Shown here: one piece after another, positions 1,662-19,615 of the stretch | How the letters are laid out: every line of letters begins with the position of its first letter | How positions within the stretch are numbered: position 1 is the first letter of the stretch | DNA from: Strongyloides papillosus | Lineage: Eukaryota; Nematoda; Chromadorea; Rhabditida; Strongyloididae | DNA length: 64,000 bases | Direction of reading: 5' to 3' | Assembly (NCBI GenBank): GCA_005656395.1 | Contig: SRSI01000079.1 | Location: forward strand, 806,001 to 870,000 | Made by a program: the position numbers and the translations under genes | The notes under the pieces: generated by a model | Database searches by the model: none | The model's input: only the letters and a program-made list of their open reading frames with translations | Told to the model about the DNA's origin: nothing

Positions 1662-3941
1662 ATGAAAAGAATCAGTAATATAGTGGATACTCCAATTTAC
1701 CAGTTACCGGGAAGTGATAGGTACCAACACACGGAGGATGAAGCTGTATCTTCAATCCCAACTAAAAAGACTAAATTTGATGTAAGTGAAATAAACACCA
1801 TTCCAAATAATATGATGTTTTAGCGAGAGTTATCTAAGGAAAATGATGAGAATGCAAATAGACATGAAGGCTCCTCAACGGTCTTGAATTTCGTACTTAA
1901 TGTTGATGATGGACAGGACGTTGCTCCAAAGAGGTCAAAAACCACGAGGCGTCGAGGATTTCCTATCAAGGTAACAAGAATCAGAGCACGAAGGGATACA
2001 ATGTCAATTGAGGAGCTACAAGACTGCTTGGACAGAAAGTTAGAGGAAAAAATAAATCGAAGTGGATGTGTAAAGCTAATTGATAGGACACATGTCCAGT
2101 GTTTGGGGTGCCCAGCAGTCATATCCCTAAACAGGAAATTTGAAGTCTGCCACATCATAAGACATTTCTCTTCCTGGCACAAGACAAACCACTTTTGTAC
2201 CAGAACCTGGCCAGGATTAGAAGGACGCCTATACACGAAATCGAACACGTACTTAAAGCTTCTACATGGATGTCCAAAAGACAAAAACTTCTTCACAGGA
2301 AAGGAGATTTCTTTCGTCCCAAAGGATGAGGATGTTGTTAAGAAGGTTACTTCGAGGGATAAGTGTAAGAAACCATTATACGGTCCAGAGAAGTCTTCTT
2401 TTAACGTTAGATGTAATTTATGTGGTTTTTTGATGGAGCATCGCGACGTATCCACACATTTTCTTACATGTCACTCGGAAAATATAAATGCTCCTAGATG
2501 TAATCTTTGTACGCAAGAAGTACTTATCAATGCTGAATTGAAATTCTTGTACGAGAAAGATTACCAAATTTCAATTGTTGATGAGGAAAGCACAAGGTCT
2601 ATCACTCTTAATAGATCTTTCGGAGGAGTTGATGATCTCTACAAAGTCTTTTCTGCTTCAGACTTTGGTGAATCGACATATAGTAAAGACAATTCATTGG
2701 ACGAGGCAATAAACATGGAAGACCCTCAGGAGGAGGACACCTTAAAAGTTGAAGGATCCAACAATTCCCGTGACTTAGGAAAAGGTGCAAAACCGAAAAG
2801 AGTTTTCGTCCACCCACGATACAGACAAGCTGTTCCAGAAAATTCGCGTTTCGTTGAGGAGTTAGCGATAAATCAGTGGAGATGCAAACTATGTGACGCG
2901 ATTATTGTTGGTGCCGTCATATCTTCAGCTGCTACAAAACATTTCAAAAAATACCACTATGAGGATAGTACCTACTTCGATGAAGGAACCAACAAAGAAA
3001 GATACAACCCAAAGTCTATCTTCTATCAGTTTTCTATGGAATTATGTGATGCACGCCTCATTAAGTGTTCTAGAGGTAGTATGCGAATGATTGATGAGAG
3101 AACCATCTGCTGTAAGGAATGTAATGGTGATTGTATGAATCTTCATAAGGATTTTAATATTTGCCGTGGAATAAAGCATTTGAAATCTAAGCATCCAGAG
3201 CTGATGCCTGAGCATAATGAATCTGTTGATGGGGAGATAATTAATAGTGGAGATCTATGTGGTATTGAAGACAGTAGAGGGTTATTGCTTGATGAAGATC
3301 TTCCACATGTTTATGAAGTTAAAGAGGAATCCTTTAGTGATCATAATGACACTATATCACATAGTGGAGCTCAGGACAATCTTGTACCAGATGTTTTTAA
3401 AGATTATGTTCCTGCTTCATCTTTAGGTGGTGAAAGTGCTTTACTTGCTCCTACAATCAAAGAGGAATGTTTGTTTAATCCTCAAGAAAATGACCACGAT
3501 CTCACTGGTCTTCCTTACAAACCCAATAATTCATTATCTCGAATAGAAACTGCTCATAGAAATATTTTTGAAGATGCCTCTTATGATGATGTCATATCAT
3601 GTAATGTTGATTATGATGACTATGTATCAAATAATTTTCCGGATTACTCATCTACTTCACCTTCCTATCTTTATGGACTAAATTCTATGGAGCACTCCGA
3701 CAATTACCCATCCTCTTCATTACTGCCATCTCAAGGAACATTAGGAATTCAACTTTATGATGGATCTACTGATTTCTTCGCAAAAGTAGTAGACTACCAA
3801 AACTATCCAATTCCAATGGATGCGGTAGATTCAATTATTATGATGCATGACATTGATGGAAGAGAATGTTATATTTTAATGACAGAGGCGGATGAACTAA
3901 ATTTCGAGACTGCATTTAAAATCTTCCGTAAGGACTATTAG
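1662..3941 (+). CDS. Multi-zinc-finger protein, paralogue A (745 aa, 2 exons)
   Basis: Probable nuclear DNA- or RNA-binding zinc-finger protein; I do not recognise an orthologue. Exon 1 is 1662-1781, a 42-bp intron (1782-1823, GTAAGT...TTTTAG) follows, and exon 2 is 1824-3941. The junction is phase 0, which supplies an ATG for an open frame that otherwise lacks one. After a basic region (residues ~75-95) come C-x2-C..H..H modules: around residues 130-160 (VQCLGC), 237-257 (VRCNLC), a CNLC pair near 265, 393-420 (WRCKLC) and 470-498 (CCKEC). The spacings between the Cys and His pairs are wider than in classical C2H2 fingers. An acidic, Ser/Asp-rich region of about 200 residues follows, and the C-terminus carries a CYILMTEADEL tail. 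Paralogue B at 6397-8962 has the same order of modules and tail but a much longer acidic N-terminus and one more finger. The coding frame is certain; the function is inferred only from the fingers. Confidence 0.85.
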
Positions 3942-6383: not shown

Positions 6384-6396
6384 AACAGCATAAGGT

Positions 6397-8962
6397 ATGG
6401 TTAATGTTGCTACAAATAATAGTAGCAGTAGAAGAGCTTCACAACGTCTCCAACGGAAAAGGAAGTACGTTGAGGATGGGGAAGGAAATTCGAGTAGTGA
6501 GAAGCCAATTAAACTAGGCGCTGACGAGGCTGTTAATGAAGAAGTCACTGCTGAATCTACAGTCAGTGATCATCAAAACAATGAAGAAAACGTCACTGGA
6601 AGTGAGGAACAGATCCATGTAGAGTCTATAGTTGAGGAGCACGATAACAGTGTACAGATCAGTAATAACAATGGTAGTGACATCCCCATCCCCGAAGAAG
6701 GTATTCACGAGGGAGAGGGTATCGTGCACGAAGACCATACTGTTGAGGGAGATGAAGTACACCATGAACTCCCATCAGAACGTGATGAAGCAATTAGTGA
6801 CCATATAAATGTTGAGGATGGAAAGTATCACCAGGACAAGCTGAAAGGAGATGAAGTAGTGGAGCATGAAGACGATAGAAGTGATCCAATTCTAGTGGAC
6901 GAGGAGCATCTCCAAGGTCATGAAGTAATAAGAATGTACAGTCCAGGAGGTACGACAGAATACGTTCAAATCGCTGAAGGAGATATCCCGGACGGTGAAG
7001 CAGTTTACGTTGATGAGAACGGAGTCATCCTTGGTAGTGTACCGCCAGAGGAGTTGCATGAATTTGAAAATGCCGTCCAGCCACCACCTCCAAGGAGCAC
7101 GATGATTGCGACAACCGGAAGCGAAACAGGGGAGCCAAGGGAGGTTGAATTTAGTTTCTACGACCAGAAGAATGTTTGTTGTGGCATGTGTGGTGAGGTC
7201 GTGCCATTCGACTCGCTTATGAATCAGCATCTACCGGAGAGACACCCTGAGATAATGAATGGTAATGGATCTGTAGACTTTGAAGAAGTACCTTATTCTG
7301 AATGGTTGAAAGACAAGCTACACAAACAAAAGGGATCAATGGATGGAGGTAGCAGGAATATGGGGTCCGGTAGTGATTCTTATGTTGGTATACCTGGACC
7401 GGCAACTCAAAGGCACCCACCATACGCACCTCCCAGGTCAAATGGAGAACGCGTCCTTCGTAAGGTATCCCAGGTACGTGTCAATCCCACAGAGATGACG
7501 ATACCTCAATTGGAAAATGCTCTTAGAAAGAAGATGGTTGAAAAAATGGGGAGAAAAGTACCTGTAACGTTAGTAGATAAACAACACGCGCAGTGCGGTA
7601 TCTGTCAGGCTATAGTATCGTTGAACAAGAAATTTGAAATCGTACACCTTGTAAGGCACTTCAATGCTTGGCATCCAAGCGTACACAGATGTTCTGGGAG
7701 CTGGCCTGGTCTGAAAGGCAACACACCAGCAACTCAACAAGCAGGGGTTCCTAAACCGCTGAGTTGTGTTGACTTTGCGATTGTCGACTCGAACATTAAT
7801 GCAAATGATAACCTTCAATGTATTTGGTGTGGGATGTTTATGGATACACAGGCTCTTGCAATGCACTTTTATGAAGTCCATCCATCGGAAGTCGAGGTAC
7901 CGAGATGCCATTTATGTTTACTGGAGTTGGTTGTTAACGCCAGACTGTCGGAGAAGTTTGGGCACGACTTCCAAATTACACTACCCGATGAGCATCACTT
8001 CTATTGTGGAAAATATGGAACTAAATATTCAAAAGAAAAAGATCTTGAAAAAGGTATGTTTTTATTTAGTTTATTTGTTTATACTTTTTATTATCATTAT
8101 AGGCATAGTTGCAAAATTAAAGAAGCTGGAAACAGGGAAAGATGAGGATCTTCCAGAGAATGAAGATGAAGAAGAAAAGGGTGACCCTGATAGTGCAGCA
8201 AACGCCACAACTAACAAGATTGCCCCTGTTCCAGAAAGTTTTTCGAACAGCAGAATGTCTCTGGGTCGCCGCTCAAAACCAAAGCGTCACTTCGTTCAAC
8301 CGGCACTCAGACAAGCAGCACCTAAAGATTCTCAATTCATTGAAGTTATATCCTTATGTCACTGGAAATGCAAACTCTGTGGAGATGGTATTATGGCTGC
8401 GGTTATCTCAGCAGGCGCTATCCGCCACTTTAGAAGTAAGCACCCAGATGTTTTGGATCAGGTACAAGTTGAATTGTGCAAAGCAAGGTTGGAAAAAGTT
8501 TCAGATGGGTGTATGGAGTTCATCAATCCAACATGTATAGAGTGTCGTGTTTGTCAGATGTCTTATCCTCTACATAAGCCCTATAATATGTGTAGAGCGA
8601 TTCGACACCTCAAAGCGAAGCATCCACAATATATGCCGGAGTACAGCACGGACAACGACCCTAATAAACCTCCTGGTGAGGAAGCATCCAGTTCGATGAT
8701 GGATGAGAGCAATTGTTTCAACAATGACACAATCTTCAACGAAACGCAGGGAGGAAACGCCACTTCAAGTTCTTTAAGTGGTCAAGACTTGAAAGTTGGA
8801 GAATTAGTTACTGATCCAAGTGTTATAGCAGAGTTAAGAGAGAAGTATGGAGTGGAATTTGATAAAGTCCAACAGGTCACCAACTCAAATGGAGAACAAA
8901 TATATATATTAATGACTGATGATCAAGAATTGGATGACGTTACCATCCAGAATATGTTATAA
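6397..8962 (+). CDS. Multi-zinc-finger protein, paralogue B (838 aa, 2 exons)
   Basis: Exon 1 is 6397-8053; a 49-bp intron (8054-8102, GTATGT...TTATAG) is followed by exon 2, 8103-8962, and the split codon gives Gly553. The N-terminal ~230 residues are very acidic with many Glu, Asp and His. Fingers follow near residues 262-285 (VCCGMC, absent from paralogue A), 398-427 (AQCGIC..H..H), 470-492 (LQCIWC), ~500 (PRCHLC), ~640 (WKCKLC) and ~697-726 (IECRVC). The protein ends in an IYILMTDDQELDD tail matching the tail of paralogue A. Without the intron, reading runs to a stop soon after the donor, so splicing is required. Both proteins look like regulators built on one nematode-type architecture. 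No specific orthologue is claimed. Confidence 0.87.
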
Positions 8963-9869
8963 AAATCGCCTGAATCCCTGTACACTTCCCACATGGACAT
9001 ACTATACTATTTACTAGCCCCAGAACACAGAACATTTTAAATATATGAATATCGTTAAATCACCAATTAATTAAACAAATAAATACTTTTAATTATATTT
9101 GTTTGATGACTATTTTTTAAGTTGTATTTGAATTTTTTTTAATGTAATAGATAGATCCTGTTTATCTAACTTGTAATTATTGTATATATTTAACAGTTAT
9201 CTTTTTTTAATAATATTTGTTTTGACAGTTATTGTACTTTATCGGTTATATAATAAATGTTATTTTAAGTGGTTTAACTCCATTTTGATGAGGTAGAAGT
9301 TATGGAAAATGATAAAGAATGTATTTTATTGTGTTTAATTTATAATTGTACATGTCATTGAAAGTTTTGAGTATGATTATTAATGTCAATATGATAAAAT
9401 CTATACTTGGCTGTCTATTTTTATTTTAATAAATCTAATTACCATATATTGAAGTGTTTTTTAACATAAAAAATAACCACTTTCTAAACATCTTATGACA
9501 ATACGATATAGACGAAGTATTTTTAGTTATAAAATCAAGTTTAATCAACATGCTTATCAGTTATAACATTTAAATAATAAGTAAAAATAGAAGTTCAAAG
9601 GTAATCGCATTGAAAAGCATAAACAATTAACTTTTTTTAAATGAATACTATTTTTTTGGAATATTGTTTTGATAGAATTGCAAAAAATATGTTGCATTTT
9701 TTATTTTACCATTGTCATTAGCGTAAATATTATTTCATGTTACGTATGTTATTTGGAAGTTGTTATATATAATTTTTATCAGCTATTTATCAAGGATTTT
9801 ACGTGAAAATTAATTCAACCACGAATGAGGGAGATTATGTTGTGTGTAGGTTATTAATGATTATTATTC
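8963..9869. other. 3' flank of paralogue B and spacer
   Basis: An AATAAA at 9078-9083 is a plausible polyadenylation signal for paralogue B. The remainder is AT-rich with no open frame or repeat that I can support. The duplicated block begins at about 9870. Confidence 0.5.
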
Positions 9870-9978
9870 CTATTATGGTGCATTTAAAGATTTGAAGGTA
9901 CTAAAAATATATAAATGGAGGTGGGACATGGTGATAAAGTGGTATTTTTGAAATAATAAATATATGTGTTTGTTGTGG

Positions 9979-9990
9979 TATATAAATATA
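9979..9990 (+). promoter_or_regulatory. TATA-like element upstream of G1, block A
   Basis: TATATAAATATA lies about 57 bases before the G1 start codon. The same 12 bases occur at the equivalent place in block B (13852-13863) although nearby bases differ. This fits a core promoter, but such strings are common in DNA this rich in AT. Confidence 0.35.
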
Positions 9991-10046
9991 GTTTTTCCAT
10001 TGTTGAAGGTTCATATTTTCATAAGTTAACATTCTTCTCATCTACA

Positions 10047-10783
10047 ATGATTTCTGCATTAGTTTTTGAGGAAAGTATTGACATTCATGCTGTCCCACAG
10101 GTATATTTTAGTAAGACCACATACTAATTACAACTAATCTAAAGGACTACATCGTTGAGGATGTCATACGCCAACTAAAATCATATGGAGTGAAATTTGC
10201 AAAAACCTCTGGAGAAAGTTGTGACATATTTGAACAGGTTTTTGATCGATGTATGCGGAGAGAATGTATTGTTAATGCACTTGGATTATGTGATAGTGAG
10301 GTTGTTTTTGTGGTCCGCCAACCAGAGTACAATACTGATATTGTTTATTTGGATGATAATGAACTTTTGGCTAATGATTTGAGGAGATTTCTACCATCGA
10401 ATCAGTATGATGTTGATCGAACGACTGATGATACATCCAGATTGAATGTTAATGATGGTGATAATAATGGGTTTAGTGGTGATTTTGAGGGGAGAGGTAA
10501 TTGGAATTCTGATGGTCCTCAGAGGGATGATCCGGTAGAAAGGCCTGATGAAGGGTCAAGGGACCAACAGCCTGAGGAGCCAAGAGATCAACAACCTGAG
10601 GAGCCAAGAGATCAACAACCTGAGGAACCAAGAGACCAACAGCCTGAGGAACCTAGAGATGAACAACCCGAGGAACCTAGAGATCAACAACCTGAGGAGC
10701 CAACTGAAGAACCAACAGAAGAGCCAAAAGATGTACCAAGTAATCGTCAAGAAGACATCCCTGATCCTCCACGGGACAACTAA
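10047..10783 (+). CDS. G1: acidic protein with eight-residue repeats (230 aa, 2 exons)
   Basis: I do not recognise this gene. Exon 1 (10047-10100, 18 codons) joins in phase 0 across a 44-bp intron (10101-10144) to exon 2 (10145-10783). The first ~110 residues look like a folded domain with mixed hydrophobic and charged residues and three or four cysteines. Then comes an Asn/Asp/Gly-rich linker and six tandem RDQQPEEP units, followed by TEEP units and a short tail. The tail is strongly acidic and likely disordered. There is no signal peptide or membrane segment. The block B copy has the same exon structure but several stops, so this is the only surviving copy here. The acceptor, CTAAAG, is weak but is shared with block B (TCAAAG). 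Function unknown. Confidence 0.6.
10559..10702 (+). repeat. 24-bp coding minisatellite, six units
   Basis: Six in-frame 24-bp units encode RDQQPEEP, one of them as RDEQPEEP. Units differ from each other mainly at synonymous positions. The equivalent part of block B keeps only about three decayed units, so copy number has changed since duplication. Confidence 0.9.
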
Positions 10784-11322
10784 GAAGAATCAACAATATA
10801 TTCATTATCACATTAAAAAATTTGTCAATTCAATTCTGACACCAACATTTCTAGAAGATTACCATGCATAATTGACAAATATTTTTCTGAAATTTTTTAT
10901 GTTAGTAAAGTTTCTATCATTTTAATATAATTATTAGTCATCAAATTCTCTTTTAGTTTGATAGCTACTTTTTAATGCAAAATTTTATTCGGTTTACTGG
11001 TGCCTTCCATTTTATTTCGTTAATAATTAAAAAATCTTCTTTGTTCACCTCTGTAAAATATTAAGCGACAAAATTGACAATGACTGTACCAAAGTAATGA
11101 TGACATTTATTGGTATAAAAGGTACTTTTTTCACTTTTTGTAAATGCAACATCCATTCTTTTATTATCTATCATCACAACAATGTGCATAGCATTTTAAC
11201 AATATTCGTTTAGTTGAATTATAATTTACTTGGTCGTGGGATTTTTTTAATTACCATCGTTTTTCTTCACAGTTTAAAATTCATAATTAACAATATTTTT
11301 TGTAGATACTAACATTTTACTA
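10784..11322. other. Spacer between G1 and G2, block A
   Basis: No gene. The DNA is closely matched by block B (about 14570-15137). A TTTTTTGTAG at 11296-11305 lies 17 bases before the G2 start and is probably a trans-splice acceptor; block B keeps it, ending at 15120. Confidence 0.5.
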
Positions 11323-11744
11323 ATGCCATCCTCGAGAAGACCAAAACAAGATGGTGGTGCCCAGGAGAACTCATCTCTCTTAAAACACTTGCAAGAGATG
11401 CAGGATGATTACAGCAAACAAAGTGAGTTTATCACATATTTCATTGATCTTTAATTTAACATTTTTTAGTTGCCATAAAGAAGAGAGATATCCTCAGTTC
11501 TGGTCCTGAGATTGTCGTTAAGGCAACCGGAATCATCCATAAGACGATAACCGATAATTTACCAGGTGAATTATTGGATATGTCTTATGGTGAGTTCCTA
11601 AAACAGATGAAAGGGTCGAACACTACTTTCGGGAGAGCTAACGATACGCTCGTTGCTATTGAAGACTTAAGGAATAGAGTCAAAAGCGGGACTGCTACGC
11701 ATGATGAGGTCAGCAAGTACAGAGAGCTCAAGAAACTTCTCTGA
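11323..11744 (+). CDS. G2, block A: small borealin-N-terminal-like protein (124 aa)
   Basis: Exon 1 is 11323-11422 and exon 2 is 11470-11744, with a 47-bp intron (GTGAGT...TTTTAG) in phase 1. The protein starts basic (SSRRPK), then has a helical, coiled-coil-like stretch (HLQEMQDDY), an LPGELLDMSYGEFL motif near residues 64-77 and a charged C-terminal helix. The stretch from the first helix to the LP..L..M.Y.EF motif resembles, from memory, the N-terminal domain of borealin, the chromosomal passenger subunit known as CSC-1 in worms. It would therefore bind survivin- and INCENP-like partners, but this is a weak, unconfirmed match. The rest of borealin is absent. The paralogue in block B is intact and only 41 of 91 residues of the second-exon part are identical. 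Confidence 0.7.
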
Positions 11745-12566
11745 TTGGATACTTTTGTCTTGTGTATTCTTAACTATGGAAAGTCCTCCAACCAATGGAG
11801 CTATTATAGTTTTTTGTTCGTTGGTGACGTCTGTTTTACAGGCATTGTTTTTTAATTGTAATTTTATTATGTGTATGTAATTTGTGTATAGAAAATTTTT
11901 CTTTTTTTGCATAGTGTAAATATGTAAATAAAATTTTTTTGGATTTTTGTTGTTGTCTTTTTATTGTGAAAAGTATATTAGCCCTGACAAGTGGATCTCC
12001 AGAAAAGTCACCTTGATGGGTTTGTGTGTCATTCTTAACTTTTTCTAAGAGTGCGGTTTGTGATGAATAAAAATGTTAAGGTATATAGCAAAATGATATA
12101 CAGAAATATAATTGTTTCTGGTATGTATGATCCTGTGGAAATATCTAATCAACGCACTGAAGCGATGATGTATATTATTTAAGATTATTTTAAACTTCGA
12201 TTTAGTCAACATTCCATTACTTGAATTTCAGTTGTCTATGACTTTATCAGTTCTTTTACAATATCTTTCTTGTTATACTGAGAAATAGTTTTCCAAAGAG
12301 TAACTAATAACATCAGAGACATTTATCAGTTGGGAAATTTATTTGGTAACATTTTTAATGTTGTATTTGAATTCATACATTATTTATTCTTAGTGGAGAA
12401 CTTTCTGGTATCAAAGATTATGGTATTCTTTTTGATATAATTAGAAATTCAAAAGCAATATAATATACAAAATTTTTCGATCTTGTCTTATATTAAAAAC
12501 ATTCTACTTAAAATATATTAAAAAGGTCTATTTTTTAGACAATCATTCTATTATTGTTCAAGATAA
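11745..12566. other. 3' flank of G2 and spacer, block A
   Basis: An AATAAA at 11927-11932 is a likely polyadenylation signal, kept in block B at 15689-15694. Bases 11915-12014 are identical to 15677-15776 over 100 bp. No open frame is supported; an 81-codon open frame on the minus strand at 11667-11912 overlaps G2 and is not credible. Confidence 0.55.
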
Positions 12567-13179
12567 ATGGGTGGAAAAGGTCGCAAAAGAAAAAATGGAT
12601 CTCTATTGTAGGTGGAGTACGAAGATTTCACACTAAAAAATGATGCATTTATTGGTATAGAGGAGAAGGACATTTTAATTTGTCGGTTAGGGAAATGTAA
12701 AAAAAAATTTTTAGATAATGAAGCTTTAAGATCTCATCGTTTACTAGAACATGGAGTTGAACTGAGATATATCACCGATAGGATATTTCTTGATAAAAAA
12801 TCATTTGATGATAGGGTAAGTATTAGCTTTATTCATGAAATTGGCGATTATTATAGGGTATGGCTAAAAAGGAGCAAAGGTATATGAAAATGAGTGATAT
12901 ACCGAGGAAAATTGAAAAGTGTTTGCCGCATGGATTTTTTTGTCCTTTTGTGAGATCTAATGAAGATATCATAATTTGTTCAATTGACAATTGCAATAGA
13001 AAATTTACTGATCCAGAGGAATTAGACGCTCATATATCGTTAGTTCATGAGGAATCTTTTGAAACTGTCAGGTATTTTCAATGCTACACTGGTCATACAC
13101 ATATTGTAAGTTACAAAAATTAACATTTATTTTATATTTAATTTGAATATTCTAGGAGAAGTTGTCGCAAAAAAAGTAA
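12567..13179 (+). pseudogene. G3, block A: two-finger C2H2 gene with early nonsense codon
   Basis: Counterpart of the intact gene at 16329-16941. The same ATG (12567) is followed after 14 codons by TAG at 12609-12611, where block B reads a Glu codon; the two bases before it also differ. No other in-frame ATG precedes the first finger. Exons would be 12567-12815, 12857-13105 and 13156-13179. From about 12730 onward the sequence, introns included, is identical to block B, so the lesion lies just outside that tract. A product from a non-ATG start cannot be excluded. Confidence 0.75.
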
Positions 13180-13394
13180 TTCTGTTTACAGTGAATTCAT
13201 AGGAAAATTATGTTTAATTTTTGGGTTGATGTTCATTATATTTGTGACTGAAATATTTTTGTTTATTCTTATAATAGTATGTTAATTTTAATCATTTTAA
13301 AACATTATTTGCATAAAAAGTTGATATTGCATTCTAATTTTTTTCTGATACAACGACACATTTTAAAAATATTTTATAATTCTCAAAGCCTAAA

Positions 13395-13733
13395 TAAGCT
13401 TCATTCATCCATGAAAAATCACTTGTAACTTACCTTCCTGGTGATATAAGGGTTATTTCCTTTTCATTTGAAAATTTGGAGGTTGTTCAAGAAATTGCGA
13501 AGGCAATAATATCACTTCAAGGAAAGTCTTCTGTTGAATTTATGAGAAATACAGATGCCTGTAAAACTATATTCATATTTACATCAGAAAAAAATATGCA
13601 TCTTGATGATCAAAAAAGTTATAGAGGAAAATTGATAAAACCTGATGATGAATATTAATCACATTTCTCTTTCAAAATTCCATATAATTGTTCACACTCA
13701 TTCAGCGGAATTTATAGAACTATTTTTTTTTAC
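13395..13733 (+). pseudogene. G4, block A: truncated arrestin-like pseudogene
   Basis: Matches the first ~110 codons of the arrestin-like gene at 17156-18139. The start codon is gone (the ATGCGAGC of block B is replaced), there are small internal changes, a TAA at 13656-13658 replaces a Tyr codon, and homology stops at about 13725 where block B begins. The remaining two thirds of the gene are missing. The duplication endpoint therefore fell within this gene. Confidence 0.85.
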
Positions 13734-13918
13734 ATTGATTCCTATTATGGTGCATTTGAAGATATGAAAATACTAAAAATATATAAATGGAGGTGGGACA
13801 TGGTGATAAAGTGCTATTTTTTGAAATAATAGATATATATGGTTTTTTTGGTATATAAATATAATTCCCCATTATTGAAGGTTCATATTTTCATACATTA
13901 ACATTATCTTCATCTGTC

Positions 13919-14569
13919 ATGATTTCAGTATTAACTTTTGAGGAAAGTATTGACATTCATGCTGTTCCACAGGTATATTTTAATAATAACGAATGCTAAT
14001 TACAACTATTTCAAAGGACTATATCGTTGAGGATGTCATACGCCAACTAAAATCATATGGAGTAATATTCGCAAAAACCTCTGAAAGCATATATGATATT
14101 TCGGAACTAGTTTTTGATTATGCTATGGTCAGATATTTAGTTCATTATGCAATTAATATATCCAATAGTGATATTGTTTTTATTGACCGTTAACCACAAT
14201 GAAGTACTGATATTGTTTATTTGGATGATAATGAACTTTTGGCTAATGATTTGAGGAGATTTCTACCATCGAATGAGTATCATGTTGATCGAACGACTGA
14301 TGATACATCGAGATTTGATGTTACTGATAACAGTGATGATTTTGAAGGGGAGAGAAAGTTGGAATTCTGATGGTCCTCAAAGTGATGATCTAATAAAAAG
14401 ACCTGATGAATAATCAAGGGATCAACAGCCTGAGGAATCCAGCGATGAACAACCCGAGGAACCTAGAAATTAACAACCTGAAGAACCAACAGTAGCACCA
14501 TCAGAAGAGCCAAAAGAAGTACCAAGTAATTGTCAAGAAGAAATCCTTGATTCTCCAAGGGATAACTAA
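13919..14569 (+). pseudogene. G1, block B: broken copy of the acidic repeat gene
   Basis: Exon 1 (13919-13972) and the splice sites to 14017 are kept, but exon 2 meets TAA at 14191-14193, where block A has a Gln codon, and then TGA and further stops, with a shifted frame in the linker. The repeat tail is reduced to about three units, one with a TAA. A 76-residue product from the first part is possible but unlikely to be functional. Confidence 0.8.
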
Positions 14570-15137
14570 AAAGAATCAATGAACTAATGATTTGTGAACT
14601 TACTTGGAATATATTCAACGATACATTCATTATCACATTAAAAAATTTGTCAGTTTAATTCTGACTCAACATTTCTAGAAGATTACCATGCATAATTAAC
14701 AAATGTATTTCTAAAATTTTTAATGTTAATGAAGTTTCTATCATTTTAATATAATTATTAGTCATCAAATGCTCTTTTAATTTGATAGTTACTTTATTAT
14801 GCAAAATTTTATTCCATTTATTGGTGCCTTCCCATTTTATTTCGTTTATAATTAAAAAATCTTCTTTGCATACTTCTATAAAACATTAAGCGACAAAATT
14901 GATAGTGATTGTATTAAAATAGTGATGACATTTATTGTATAAAAGATACCTTTAAGAAAAGTGCAACATTCATTCTTTTATTGGGTATCGTCACCAATTT
15001 ATAGTGCTTTAACAATATTCCTTTCGATAGTTTATAGTTTACTTAATCGTGGAATTTTTTTAATTTATCTTCGTTTTTTTTCACCGTTTAAAATTCATGG
15101 TTAACAATATTTTTTTGTAGATACTAGCTTTTTTCTG
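14570..15137. other. Spacer between G1 remnant and G2, block B
   Basis: No gene. Aligns with 10784-11322 at roughly 85-90% by eye. A TTTTTTGTAG ending at 15120 is the probable trans-splice acceptor for G2. Confidence 0.5.
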
Positions 15138-15556
15138 ATGGTTTCTGCAAGAGGAGTAAAGCAAAATCATGATTCTTGCGGAGGCTCATTTCTCGATGTG
15201 CTTCAAGAGATAAAAAATGACTACAGTAAACAAGGTAACTTTATTACGTATTTCTCTAGTTTATAATTTAATACTTTTTAGTCGCTGTAGAATTATGCAA
15301 GATTCTCAGCTATAACCAAGATGCTATCACTAAGGCAGCGGATATTATATATCTGACGGTAATCGATGGCTTGCCAAAGGAGTTATTGAATGCCAATTAT
15401 GGGGAGTTTCTGAGTCAGACGGGTGGAATGAGCTCAACAAATGATGAAGCAGATGCTACAATTACAGCCTTCACAGAATTAAGCAACAGGATCAACAGTG
15501 GAACTGCCACGTTTGAGGAGATTAGGAGATATAGAGAGATCGAGAAACTTCTGTAA
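15138..15556 (+). CDS. G2, block B: small borealin-N-terminal-like protein (123 aa)
   Basis: Exon 1 is 15138-15234 and exon 2 is 15282-15556, with a 47-bp phase 1 intron (GTAACT...TTTTAG), the same structure as block A G2. It keeps the LPKELLNANYGEFL motif, the SGTAT..E...YRE..KLL C-terminus and the DYSKQ segment before the junction. Many other positions have changed, including charge reversals and new cysteines in the first exon. The frame is fully open, so both copies appear to be under constraint despite low identity. The similarity to the borealin N-terminal domain is the same tentative reading as for block A. If it is real, two diverging passenger-complex subunits lie 3.8 kb apart. Confidence 0.7.
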
Positions 15557-16328
15557 ATAAATTATTTTTATGTTGTGTGGCACGATGGAAAGAAAAATTT
15601 CAATTTGTAAAGCTAATGTATATTTTTATTTTATAATATCTTCTTTTTTTGTGTATAGTGTAAATATATTTTAATTTGTAAATATGTAAATAAAATTTTT
15701 TTGGATTTTTGTTGTTGTCTTTTTATTGTGAAAAGTATATTAGCCCTGACAAGTGGATCTCCAGAAAAGTCACCTTAATAGATTTTCTGTGTCATTATTA
15801 ACTTTTTCAAAGACTGTGGTTTGTAGTAAATAAAAAATAAAGTTATAAAGCAAGTTGGTATACAGAAATATAGTTGTTCCTGGTATGTATGATCCTGTGG
15901 AAGTATCAAATCAACGTACTGAAGCAGTAATGTATATTATTTAAGATTATTTTAAACTTCGATTTAGTTAACATTCCATTACTTGAATTTCAGTTGTCTA
16001 TGACTTTATCAGTTCTTTTACAATATCTTTCTTGTTATACTGAGAAATAGTTTTCCAAAGAGTAACTAAATACATCAGAGACATTTATCAGTTGGAAAAT
16101 TTATTTGGTAACATTTTTAATGTTGTATTTTAACCCATATATTCTTTATTCGTAGTTAGGAGCTTTCCGGATTCAAAGATTATGTTATTCTTTTTGATAT
16201 TATTAGAAATTCATTAGCAATTTAATATAAAAAATTTCCCGATCTCACCTTATATTTAATAAATTCCACTTATAATGTATTACTAAGGATTATTTTTTAG
16301 ACAATCATTCTATTATTGTTCAAGATAT
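15557..16328. other. 3' flank of G2 and spacer, block B
   Basis: Holds an AATAAA at 15689-15694 and the 100-bp segment 15677-15776 identical to block A. Otherwise AT-rich DNA matching 11745-12566. No open frame supported. Confidence 0.5.
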
Positions 16329-16941
16329 ATGAGTGGAAAAGGACGCAAAAGAAAAAATGGATCTCTATTAGAGGTGAAATACGAAGATTTCACACTAAAA
16401 AATGATGTATTTATTGGTATAGATGAAAAAGACATTTTAATTTGTCGGTTAGGGAAATGTGAAAAAAAATTCTTAGATAATGAAGCTCTGAGATCTCATC
16501 GTTTACTAGAACATGGAGTTGAACTGAGATATATCACCGATAGGATATTTCTTGATAAAAAATCATTTGATGATAGGGTAAGTATTAGCTTTATTCATGA
16601 AATTGGCGATTATTATAGGGTATGGCTAAAAAGGAGCAAAGGTATATGAAAATGAGTGATATACCGAGGAAAATTGAAAAGTGTTTGCCGCATGGATTTT
16701 TTTGTCCTTTTGTGAGATCTAATGAAGATATCATAATTTGTTCAATTGACAATTGCAATAGAAAATTTACTGATCCAGAGGAATTAGACGCTCATATATC
16801 GTTAGTTCATGAGGAATCTTTTGAAACTGTCAGGTATTTTCAATGCTACACTGGTCATACACATATTGTAAGTTACAAAAATTAACATTTATTTTATATT
16901 TAATTTGAATATTCTAGGAGAAGTTGTCGCAAAAAAAGTAA
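16329..16941 (+). CDS. G3, block B: small protein with two C2H2 zinc fingers (173 aa, 3 exons)
   Basis: Exons are 16329-16577, 16619-16867 and 16918-16941, separated by introns of 41 and 50 bp, both phase 0, with GTAAGT donors and TTATAG/TTCTAG acceptors. Reading through the introns would give two overlapping short frames; splicing joins them. Each half holds one finger of spacing C-x4-C-x12-H-x4-H: the first has ICRLGKC, the second ICSIDNC. The protein starts with a basic GRKRK stretch, a possible nuclear localisation signal, and ends EKLSQKK. Two widely spaced fingers suggest nucleic-acid binding, but the target is unknown. The block A copy is identical from mid-exon 1 onward yet carries a nonsense codon near its start. 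Confidence 0.75.
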
Positions 16942-17155
16942 TTCTGTTTACAGTGAATTCATAGGAAAATTATGTTTAATTTTTGGGTTGATGTTCATTA
17001 TATTTGTGACTGAAATATTTTTTGTTTATTCTTATAATAGTATGTTAATTTTAGTCATTTTAAAACATTATTTGCATAAAAGGTTAATATTGCATTCTAA
17101 TTTTTTCTTGTTAAAATAACATATTTTACAAGCATTTCATTAATTCTTAAAGACT

Positions 17156-18139
17156 ATGCGAGCTTCATTTATCCTTGAGAAACCATCCGCAATCTACTTT
17201 CCTGGTGATGTAGTAGCAGGTTCATTTTCATTTGAGAACTTGGAGGTTGATCAAAAAATTGTGAAGGTAGTAATATCACTTCAAGGAAAGTCTTCTGTTG
17301 AATTTATGAGGAATACAGATGATTGCAAGACTATATGCATATTTACATCAGAGAAAAATATGCATCTTGAAGATCAAAAAAGTTATAGAGGAAAATTAAT
17401 AAAGCCTGATGATGAATATTACTCGCATTTCTCTTTCAAAATTCCATATAATTGGCCACACTCATTCAGAGGAATTTATGGGACTATCCGTTATACATTG
17501 AAGGGAGATGTTATTATTAGCAAAGATTATTCAAAGAGTAAGGAATTTGAAATTATCATACAACCAAGGTTACCACTGAATGTATTGCATCAAAAGATGG
17601 AGCCTAATTATATTAATGCTGTGGTACCAATAGAAGTTTGTGGATGTCATAAGGATGCTTCTAGTGATGAAAAAATACACTTTCTAATAAAGACAGCAAA
17701 GAAGATTTACCTACCAAATGAGGATGTTGAATTTTATGTCAAAATAACAAATAAATCATCAACAAGAATATCTAAGATTCGTTACTATTTTCTCAGAGAA
17801 GAAAAATATGAAGGAAATATGGCGATGTCAGATGTTGCTTCACTCTCCAATGGTAATGATAACTCTTCTACAATAGTAACCCAGACATATGAAATGAGGA
17901 AAAAGATGTTTATTGTGAATGTAAATATTGAACCAGGACAGAAAAAGATTTTAACCTCTACTTTGAATACTGGTAAAACAAAGACTGGAATTGATTTTGG
18001 GGGTAATATTAATGTTATGCACTTTATTGTTGTTGAAGCGATTCCAGAAAAATCTCTACCGGAGTGTAATATTCATGCCAAACTTCGTTTATACATTGAT
18101 AGCGTTGATTTTGAAAAGGAAACAAATTTCACTATATAA
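17156..18139 (+). CDS. G4, block B: arrestin-domain (alpha-arrestin-like) protein (327 aa)
   Basis: Single exon. The N-terminal half has the arrestin-N pattern: a starting beta strand, IYFPGDVVAGSF, an extended strand with VVISLQGK, then FSFKIP and the loop before RYTLKGDV. The second half starts near residue 175 with FLIKTAKKIYLPNEDVEFYV and continues as an arrestin-C sandwich. Length (327 residues) fits nematode ARRD proteins, which act as cytoplasmic adaptors that link membrane cargo to trafficking or ubiquitylation. The C-terminus is short, and I see no PPxY motif for a ubiquitin ligase. A truncated copy lies at 13395-13733. Confidence 0.85.
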   Translation: MRASFILEKPSAIYFPGDVVAGSFSFENLEVDQKIVKVVISLQGKSSVEFMRNTDDCKTICIFTSEKNMHLEDQKSYRGKLIKPDDEYYSHFSFKIPYNWPHSFRGIYGTIRYTLKGDVIISKDYSKSKEFEIIIQPRLPLNVLHQKMEPNYINAVVPIEVCGCHKDASSDEKIHFLIKTAKKIYLPNEDVEFYVKITNKSSTRISKIRYYFLREEKYEGNMAMSDVASLSNGNDNSSTIVTQTYEMRKKMFIVNVNIEPGQKKILTSTLNTGKTKTGIDFGGNINVMHFIVVEAIPEKSLPECNIHAKLRLYIDSVDFEKETNFTI

Positions 18140-19042
18140 TTTTTTAAGACATTCAATTAATTCACTGATATATCCTTAGTATTACAAAAAAGTATAACAA
18201 TTAATTTTAACGTAAATAAACGTAATATTTCAAAATTAAATTTTAAATTGTCTATAATGGTAAACTTTCTATTTATTATATTATTATAACTAAAATCAAC
18301 TTATCAAGTCATGATCATGTCTATCAAGATATCTTCAATAAAAAAGATCATTTATTATGACTAACTATTTTATAGAAATATGTAAATTAAGTATTGAAAA
18401 TTGATAATTTTTACTAGATTAATATTTATGATTGTTCTCAGGAGAAGATTTTCTCAATCCAATTTGAATTATAGTATTAGAAGAAGGTTCTATCAATTCT
18501 CAAATGTGATATAAAAAAGTGACGCTTTAATACTTTTCAAAAAATTTATTGTGAAAAGAAAAGTTATTATCAATTGATAAAGCAAGTAAAGCGTTTTATA
18601 AAATTGGTGACAATCAGAAGATATAAATTGATAACATGTTTAAAGAAATGTCAGTTGTCCTAAATTTCGTCATCGTTTATGTTTGTGGTCATTTTTACTA
18701 GAGATTCAAATTTACCATCATGTTTTTTTAAGAATGTTAGTTTTCATATTAGTCTCAGGGATTACACGATGTTTCTAGTCCAAATTCCCATTTTTATAGA
18801 GGAATCTTATCATAGCAACCATTATATTTATGCATTGTTTCACATATGTTCTAGATCTATAGTCTAATTACTTATCAAACGAACACCCTACCAATAGTTT
18901 AATTCGTTATAAAAATAGTCACTACAGTACATTTTTTTTATTTTTGATAAATTTAGACTCCGATTATTTTGGTTGATTTCTAGGTGCTTCAAGTAGTATA
19001 TACACTACCACCTTGTAAATATACAAACTAAATATTAAGAAA
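18140..19042. other. Spacer after the duplicated block
   Basis: No gene supported. A 62-codon open frame at 18679-18867 has a composition expected of AT-rich noncoding DNA. Confidence 0.5.
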
Positions 19043-19615
19043 ATGGCATCAATTGAGGAGAAGTTTGAAAATCTTCAACTTAATGAAGGGTCCAAGATGT
19101 CTAAAAAAAATAGTCGTTATCCAGAAAGCGTTAGCCAGATGCTAAAGCTTAAATGTAAGTAACTAAAGTCATATAGTTTCTAAGCTTTATGTTTTATAGA
19201 TAATCTTGGTGGAGCTATATTTCAACGTTTTAATGATAAGATTGAAGATAGCCAACTTGATGAAGTATCCAATAAGATTCAAGAGCTATCTGAGTTTTTC
19301 GAGAAACTTCTTCAGGAGAGTGGCTATGAAAAACCTCAATACCGTAGACGTCGTTTCAATTATAGACGCCGTTTTAATAATGGAAATGCAAAAGGAAATT
19401 CTACCAATAATGAAGAACCGAGTAGTTCAGATAAGGAAAATAATGAAAACAAGAACAATCAAAACAACGATCCAACATCGAAGAAACCAAAGAAAAACTA
19501 CAATCGAAGATATAATAAAAGAAATAAATCAAACATGGCTGGAAAAGGTCAACCCAAATCAAATGAAATTGGAGAGGCACAAGGAAATGGATGTCCTCAT
19601 GAAAGCAATGCATGA
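19043..19615 (+). CDS. Basic Asn-rich protein of unknown function (175 aa, 2 exons)
   Basis: Exon 1 is 19043-19154 and exon 2 is 19200-19615, with a 45-bp intron (19155-19199, GTAAGT...TTATAG) in phase 1; the split codon is Tyr. The unspliced frame hits stops, so the gene is visible only after splicing. Residues 1-75 are mixed and predicted helical (IEEKFENLQL; DEVSNKIQELSEFFEKLL). After residue ~80 the protein is low complexity, with RRRRF and RRRF clusters, Asn/Lys/Glu runs and KKPKKN. The basic patches could bind nucleic acid or act as nuclear signals. No family recognised. Confidence rests on the phase-consistent splice, the open spliced frame of 176 codons and helical first half. Confidence 0.62.

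What the first reader, a model, noticed from the sequence alone, without database searches (positions are those of the whole stretch)
9870..18140. Tandem four-gene block with reciprocal gene decay
Two adjacent copies carry G1-G2-G3-G4 in the same order. The left copy keeps G1 and loses G3 (nonsense) and G4 (truncation); the right copy loses G1 (several stops) and keeps G3 and G4. Only G2 survives in both. The set has been returned almost to single-copy dosage by complementary loss, while G2 was kept as a pair. None of G1, G2 or G3 matches a family I can name with confidence, so the block may be lineage-specific.
Basis: partly seen in the sequence, partly recalled or inferred. Interest (0 to 1): 0.8.

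Follow-up and report, generated by a model that had tools for sequence, protein, structure and literature searches.

The report
Tandem block keeps diverged borealin pair
In a parasitic worm of the genus Strongyloides, an old tandem duplication of four genes has only one working copy of three of them, while the fourth, which resembles the cell-division protein borealin, stayed as two very different copies; the same genome also carries several copies of borealin's likely partners.

Summary
Two head-to-tail units (9863-13733, 13734-17502) carry G1-G2-G3-G4: G1 intact left and broken right, G3 nonsense left and intact right, G4 a 5' stub left and complete right, G2 intact in both. The window matches Strongyloides papillosus.

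The interpretation needs three corrections. (1) Left G4 was cut by the duplication junction: born truncated, not decayed. (2) The block is not evenly aged. G1, G3, G4 and spacers are about 80-100% identical by segment, with identical tracts of 527, 100 and 100 bp that indicate gene conversion; G2 is 46% identical in protein and near saturation at fourfold sites (7/20 identical, neighbours 66/72). S. venezuelensis has an orthologue of each G2, so the pair predates that species split. (3) G2 is borealin-like (chromosomal passenger complex), G3 a C2H2 protein, G4 an arrestin-domain protein; G1 occurs in other Strongyloididae.

Best reading: an old tandem duplication kept young outside G2 by conversion, with two borealin-like genes preserved as distinct functions. 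The genome has two more borealin-like genes, five or six survivin-like and four INCENP-like loci. Distinct roles are inference.

The parts
9863..13733 (+). Left unit of the tandem duplication (G1, G2L, broken G3, G4 5' stub)
13734..17502 (+). Right unit, duplicated part (broken G1, G2R, G3, first third of G4)
13723..13745 (+). Tandem-duplication junction: G4 sequence (matching to about 17502) joined to the unit start (matching from about 9866)
   Evidence: three edges printed, compared by eye; precision limited by later divergence
10047..10783 (+). G1 left, intact: exons 10047-10100 and 10145-10783, 230 aa, C-terminal Asp/Gln/Pro/Glu-rich repeats
   Evidence: relatives (residues 1-150: 88% S. 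venezuelensis, 68% S. ratti, 60% P. trichosuri)
13919..14569 (+). G1 right, pseudogene: internal in-frame stops at 14191, 14200, 14411, 14471 and gaps of 14 and 72 columns
11323..11744 (+). G2L, borealin-like, exons 11323-11422 and 11470-11744, 124 aa, identical to UniRef A0A0N5BHI6 of S. papillosus
15138..15556 (+). G2R, borealin-like, exons 15138-15234 and 15282-15556, 123 aa; 75% identical to S. venezuelensis P0007, 46% to G2L
12567..13179 (+). G3 left, broken: TAG at 12609; exons 12567-12815, 12857-13105, 13156-13179
16329..16941 (+). G3 right, intact: exons 16329-16577, 16619-16867, 16918-16941, 173 aa, one C2H2 finger over Pfam's cut-off and a second finger-like stretch
13392..13738 (+). 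G4 left 5' stub: no start codon, TAA at 13395 and 13656, ends at the junction
17156..18139 (+). G4 right, complete arrestin-domain protein, 327 aa, single open frame
12729..13255 (+). 527-bp tract identical to 16491-17017 (G3 exons, introns and downstream spacer): recent gene conversion
11915..12014 (+). 100-bp tract identical to 15677-15776, directly after the diverged G2 3' region
12208..12307 (+). 100-bp tract identical to 15970-16069

Best explanation
An ancestor of S. papillosus and S. venezuelensis duplicated in tandem a segment running from about 180 bp upstream of G1 into about codon 115 of G4. Left G4 was therefore born as a stub. Right G1 decayed, perhaps before the species split. 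Left G3 took a nonsense mutation, by the evidence at hand in the S. papillosus lineage. Gene conversion between the units has kept G3 and parts of the spacers (and possibly G1 and G4) alike, while the two G2 genes escaped or resisted conversion and diverged to near saturation at synonymous sites. G2 encodes a short, mostly helical protein resembling the N-terminal region of borealin (Nbl1 in yeast, CSC-1 in C. elegans), the part that by recall binds survivin and INCENP. G2L and G2R were kept as a pair because they do different jobs, most likely as alternative borealin subunits of chromosomal passenger complexes used in different cells, stages or sexes. Shown: duplication, junction, broken copies, identical tracts, the divergence contrast, an S. 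venezuelensis orthologue for each G2, sequence resemblance to borealin. Inferred: order and timing of the G1 and G3 losses, CPC membership, distinct roles, selection as the reason conversion spares G2.
For: Colinear units and junction. K2P outside G2 is 0-0.24 by segment, against 0.60-0.62 in G2 exons and 0.78 in the G2 3' region. Fourfold sites identical 7/20 in G2 against 24/26 (G4), 12/13 (G3 before the tract) and 30/33 (G1), Fisher p 5.5e-7 for 7/20 against 66/72. Outside G2 there are three identical runs of at least 95 columns; 0 of 5,000 shuffles had three and 8 had at least one. The tree pairs G2L with S. venezuelensis P0003 (86/92) and G2R with P0007 (100/100), both pairs together 94/91. 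S. venezuelensis G3 (P0009) has a tail matching the right G1 remnant better than left G1 (36.6 against 30.4 bits). G3 left and right agree at 113/113 residues in the tract but each only at 95/113 with S. venezuelensis, so they were homogenised after speciation. The four-row G2 profile finds borealin as its seven best PDB hits (E 4e-4 to 1.5e-3; with nine rows 1.7e-3 to 7.5e-3). One of the four genes, not G2L or G2R and so one of the contig 7 pair, hits Pfam Nbl1_Borealin_N at 5.8e-5. Partner families are also multi-copy: BIR 7 places, INCENP 4 places.
Against: Neither G2L nor G2R reaches Pfam PF10444 on its own; only 2 of 9 family members match it; adding rows made the PDB match weaker; the AlphaFold model (pLDDT 69, pTM 0.26) gave no PDB match at E <= 0.001 and no borealin among its 27 listed matches. 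The G2 intron is more alike (25/35 interior sites) than fourfold sites in its exons (7/20), p 0.012, which a simply older G2 does not predict. GC3 is raised in both G2 copies (0.46 and 0.40, against 0.27 and 0.26 in the contig 7 genes), so part of the synonymous divergence may come from shifted codon usage. dN/dS of 0.27 is unreliable because dS (1.73) is near saturation. The P0009 tail also matches S. venezuelensis G1 (36.3 bits in a separate search), so its origin from the right remnant is favoured, not certain. No S. venezuelensis DNA was available. No expression data.
Confidence: 0.65

Rival explanations
1. Accelerated exon evolution: one duplication of one age, no special protection from conversion; the G2 exons alone changed fast under divergent selection and a shift in codon usage.
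For: The G2 intron and the stretch just 5' of G2 are only moderately diverged (74.5% and 79.6%); intron interior 25/35 against fourfold 7/20; raised GC3 in both G2 copies.
Against: Fourfold and twofold sites are near saturation (7/20 and 19/33), the 170-bp region after the stop codon is the most diverged stretch of all (53.8% with 52 gap columns), and the identical tracts show that conversion has acted next door.
Confidence: 0.2
2. One G2 copy was overwritten by ectopic conversion or insertion from another borealin-like paralogue, bringing an older sequence into a younger block.
For: Sharp 3' edge: 53.8% identity steps to a 100-bp identical run at 11915/15677; other paralogues exist on contig 7.
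Against: G2L and G2R group together apart from both contig 7 genes (94/91); the intron is alike beyond shuffles (0 of 500); the genome search found no further copy that could be the donor (E <= 1).
Confidence: 0.1
3. One reading: a lineage-specific block of unknown genes returned to single dosage by symmetric reciprocal decay, G2 kept for dosage.
For: Right G1 and left G3 are indeed broken.
Against: Left G4 is a breakpoint product; the two G2 proteins are 46% identical, which argues against dosage; three of the four genes can be given a family or a resemblance.
Confidence: 0.07
4. Assembly artefact: two haplotypes joined head to tail.
For: The assembly or strain shows homopolymer-length differences (contig 7b exon 1 frame against UniRef P0004, compared by eye).
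Against: S. venezuelensis has a separate orthologue for each G2 copy and a G3 model with a G1-like tail; haplotypes would not be saturated inside one gene only.
Confidence: 0.03

Closest known systems
Borealin / Nbl1 / CSC-1 N-terminal region (Pfam PF10444)
   Same: Helical region followed by an LP..LL.M.Y..F motif that aligns with LP.AL.EMNW.DY of borealin in solved structures
   Different: 122-127-residue proteins; about residues 83-124 lie outside the match; the W of the solved borealins is Y in all nine rows
Drosophila borealin-related and its paralogue Australin
   Same: A duplicated borealin in which one copy replaces the other in one cell type, spermatocytes (passages of PMC8870657)
   Different: Australin lacks a stretch of 140 residues of its paralogue; here both copies are short, sit in one tandem block, and the family numbers four in the genome
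Zebrafish Birc5a/Birc5b (survivin paralogues)
   Same: A passenger-complex subunit kept as paralogues that the authors call subfunctionalised (passages of PMC3630083)
   Different: A different subunit, in another lineage
Tandem duplicates under concerted evolution with a diverged island
   Same: Identical tracts beside a diverged functional gene
   Different: Known cases such as RHD/RHCE or opsins are recalled, not looked up here; this one involves a borealin-like gene in a nematode

Membership tests
Borealin/Nbl1 (PF10444) | Profile match to the N-terminal region | tested here: inconclusive
   2 of 9 family members match PF10444 (best 5.8e-5); G2L and G2R alone do not. The four-row profile hits PDB borealin at 4e-4, the nine-row profile at 1.7e-3.
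Borealin/Nbl1 (PF10444) | Helix, then LP motif and aromatic residue that pack on survivin and INCENP | tested here: inconclusive
   LP invariant, Tyr in place of Trp; the model is helical but of low confidence and gives no borealin fold match. The role of these residues in binding is recalled.
Chromosomal passenger complex | Binds survivin and INCENP, recruits Aurora B | not testable with these tools
   Partner families are present in the genome in several copies.
C2H2 zinc finger (G3) | C2H2 profile match | tested here: met
   PF00096 25.4 bits against cut-off 25.2 for residues 124-147; the first finger-like stretch is recognised by eye and weakly by a related model (ZN142, residues 42-63).
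Arrestin-domain protein (G4) | Arrestin_N and Arrestin_C domains | tested here: met
   PF00339 5.5e-13 and PF02752 3.6e-14.
Reciprocal gene loss after tandem duplication | Each unit lost different genes by mutation after duplication | tested here: inconclusive
   Met for G1 (right) and G3 (left); not met for G4, which was cut at the junction.
Gene conversion between units | Identical tracts longer than chance; paralogues closer than orthologues | tested here: met
   0 of 5,000 shuffles had three runs of at least 95 columns. G3 L-R 113/113 against 95/113 to S. venezuelensis. Met for G3 and two spacer tracts; not shown for G1 and G4.

The most novel reading that the evidence does not exclude
The papillosus-venezuelensis clade has evolved a set of alternative chromosomal passenger complexes (in S. 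papillosus four borealin-like, five or six survivin-like and three or four INCENP-like genes), and this tandem block holds two of the borealins, shielded from the conversion that homogenises their neighbours. Such complexes could serve mitotic parthenogenesis, the fused I-X chromosome, or sex-specific chromatin diminution. A role only in diminution is less likely, since S. venezuelensis has orthologues of both G2 genes and no reported diminution. Survivin and INCENP copy numbers in other Strongyloides were not tested.
Probability: 0.3. Interest if true: 0.8.

Novelty: new variant of a known kind. Interest (0 to 1): 0.52.

Why it matters
The block is a compact natural record of how a duplicated segment resolves gene by gene: stub at birth, decay, conversion and divergence side by side. 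If the G2 genes are borealins, the genome offers a set of duplicated passenger-complex subunits in worms known for mitotic parthenogenesis and, in S. papillosus, for chromatin diminution that makes males. Passages of PMC10676810 say that S. [quoted passage not shown] venezuelensis; paralogue-specific expression in the two species would test whether the passenger complex was remodelled with that system.

Tried and rejected
Rejected: dosage as the reason both G2 are kept (proteins 46% identical). Rejected: positive selection proven by dN/dS (dS near saturation; omega 0.27 is not interpretable). Rejected: the whole block as a lineage-specific novelty (G1 in S. ratti and P. trichosuri); G3, by contrast, was found only in S. 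venezuelensis (1 hit). Contig 7 as a second copy of the whole block: only the G2 genes match there.

Led nowhere: Rfam (0 matches); tRNA scan (0); AlphaFold of the G1 family (pLDDT 36); Foldseek of G2 (27 matches at E <= 10, 0 at E <= 0.001); PF10444 in the genome (3 weak hits, 0 over cut-off). Paper searches of the held open library: Strongyloides with borealin, 0 papers; with INCENP, 1 paper, a review of DNA elimination read in passages; with tandem duplication and gene conversion, 1 paper on major sperm protein, seen as listing only.
Full report
What the window is. A search with the G2 family returned a UniRef protein of Strongyloides papillosus identical to G2L over its full length; the genome held has 58.2 Mb in 79 contigs and the window lies on contig 3. 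The identification rests on that identity and on all 8 hits being Strongyloides.

The block. blastn of the region against the window shows two colinear units, aligned end to end. Left unit 9863-13733, right unit 13734 to about 17502; only the right G4 continues, to 18139. At the junction, G4 sequence matching the right copy up to the bases ACATTGA runs into sequence matching the unit start at ATTCCTATTATGG. The left G4 is therefore a product of the duplication breakpoint. It later lost its start codon and gained two stops. Right G1 has four internal in-frame stops and gaps of 14 and 72 columns; left G3 has a single TAG at codon 15. In left G3 the next in-frame ATG is in exon 2, so a one-finger product is conceivable (by eye).

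The genes. G1: 230 aa, no Pfam family over cut-off; 3 relatives found, in S. venezuelensis (88% over residues 1-150), S. ratti (68%) and Parastrongyloides trichosuri (60%). G3: 173 aa with one C2H2 match just over cut-off; 1 protein found, from S. venezuelensis. G4: arrestin N and C domains. In their own genome G1, G3 and G4 matched only these two units, apart from one weak G3 hit elsewhere (E 0.03). G2 gave five match rows, which are the two G2 genes here and two genes about 1.2 kb apart on contig 7.

G2 is borealin-like. A profile of the four genes found borealin as the seven best PDB chains (E 4e-4 to 1.5e-3); with nine rows the same seven lead, more weakly (1.7e-3 to 7.5e-3). Pfam Nbl1_Borealin_N matches 2 of 9 members, best 5.8e-5; the answer does not say which, but UniRef gives that domain name to P0002 and P0006, the contig 7a type. 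G2L and G2R alone do not match the model. AlphaFold gives helices at low confidence and no useful PDB match. Borealin is the best-supported label, short of proof.

Uneven divergence. By segment the spacers and G1, G3, G4 are 79.5-100% identical between units (K2P 0-0.24; single 100-column windows go down to 72% in G1, at and next to the G1-G2 spacer). G2 exons are about 60% and the 170 bp after G2 are 54%. At fourfold sites with the same first two bases, 7 of 20 are identical in G2, against 24/26 in G4, 12/13 in G3 and 30/33 in G1 (Fisher p 5.5e-7). These counts leave out codons with stops or gaps, the G1 repeats, and the part of G3 inside the identical tract. Three identical tracts (527, 100 and 100 bp) lie in a background of 11.3% mismatches outside G2; in 5,000 shuffles of those columns the longest run was 122, 8 shuffles had at least one run of 95 or more, and none had three. 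The long tract covers introns and spacer as well as exons, so coding constraint is not the reason. Against a simply older G2: its intron keeps 25/35 interior sites, more than the fourfold sites (p 0.012), and both G2 copies have raised GC3.

Dating with S. venezuelensis. In a nine-protein tree G2L pairs with P0003 (86/92, below the tool's mark for strong support) and G2R with P0007 (100/100), the two pairs together at 94/91, apart from the contig 7 genes. P0003 and P0007 bear accession numbers A0A0K0G343 and A0A0K0G345, which suggests but does not prove neighbours. The only S. venezuelensis G3 found, P0009, ends in a tail absent from G3 here; within the window that tail matches the right G1 remnant best (36.6 bits, left G1 30.4), and it also matches the S. 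venezuelensis G1 protein (36.3 bits in a separate search with other settings), so the side is favoured and not certain. If that gene model is right, S. venezuelensis has a G3 next to a G1 remnant as in the left unit, and it has no stop at codon 15. Left and right G3 of S. papillosus agree at 113 of 113 residues in the tract and 48 of 53 before it; with P0009 they agree at 95/113 each in the tract, and at 41/53 (left) and 40/54 (right) before it. That is conversion after the split.

The wider setting. BIR domains occur at 7 places: one lies in a 674-aa open frame that I take, from recall, for a BRUCE-like protein; five carry an intact survivin-like open frame of 110-119 aa; one is short, 66 aa. 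Two of those five were rescanned with Pfam and passed; one was compared with the PDB, where survivin is among the hits but BIRC1 (NAIP) chains score higher. INCENP ARK-binding regions occur at 4 places over Pfam's cut-off; 3 of 4 were rescanned and passed, and the one on contig 2 is the weakest and lacks part of the region. Aurora-like kinases were not clearly counted (62 kinase matches; three places stand out at 50-69% identity). S. papillosus makes males by chromatin diminution of a fused I-X chromosome and this is not reported in S. venezuelensis (passages of PMC4183129 and PMC10676810). Whether these copy numbers differ from other nematodes was not tested; passages of PMC8172070 name BIR-1, ICP-1 and CSC-1 as the C. 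elegans subunits, and that each is single there is recall.

Verdict.

Noticed in passing
G000 contigs 1, 4, 7, 47 (BIR) and 1, 2, 7 (INCENP): Survivin-like (five intact open frames, one short) and INCENP-like (four) loci in the S. papillosus genome, suggesting a multi-copy passenger-complex toolkit.
   Followed up: partly
G000:C7:652969-654614 (L011): A second tandem pair of borealin-like genes; one has a frame break at a homopolymer in exon 1 relative to the UniRef protein P0004, so assembly or strain indels exist (by eye).
   Followed up: partly
window 1824-3941 and 6394-8962: Two large zinc-finger-like genes in tandem that look like old paralogues of each other (by eye, not computed).
   Followed up: no
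window 11323-11744 and 15138-15556: Raised third-position GC (0.46, 0.40) in both G2 copies compared with the contig 7 genes (0.27, 0.26).
   Followed up: partly
protein P0009 (S. venezuelensis): Gene model that fuses a G3 protein to a G1-like repeat tail; may be a real fusion or an annotation read-through across the unit boundary.
   Followed up: partly
UniRef proteins of S. papillosus: The searches for G1, G2 and G3 returned no S. papillosus entry for G1, G2R or G3, so the published gene set may lack most of this block.
   Followed up: no
window 19044-19500: A further small gene downstream of the block with a similar short first exon (by eye); no link to G2 was tested.
   Followed up: no
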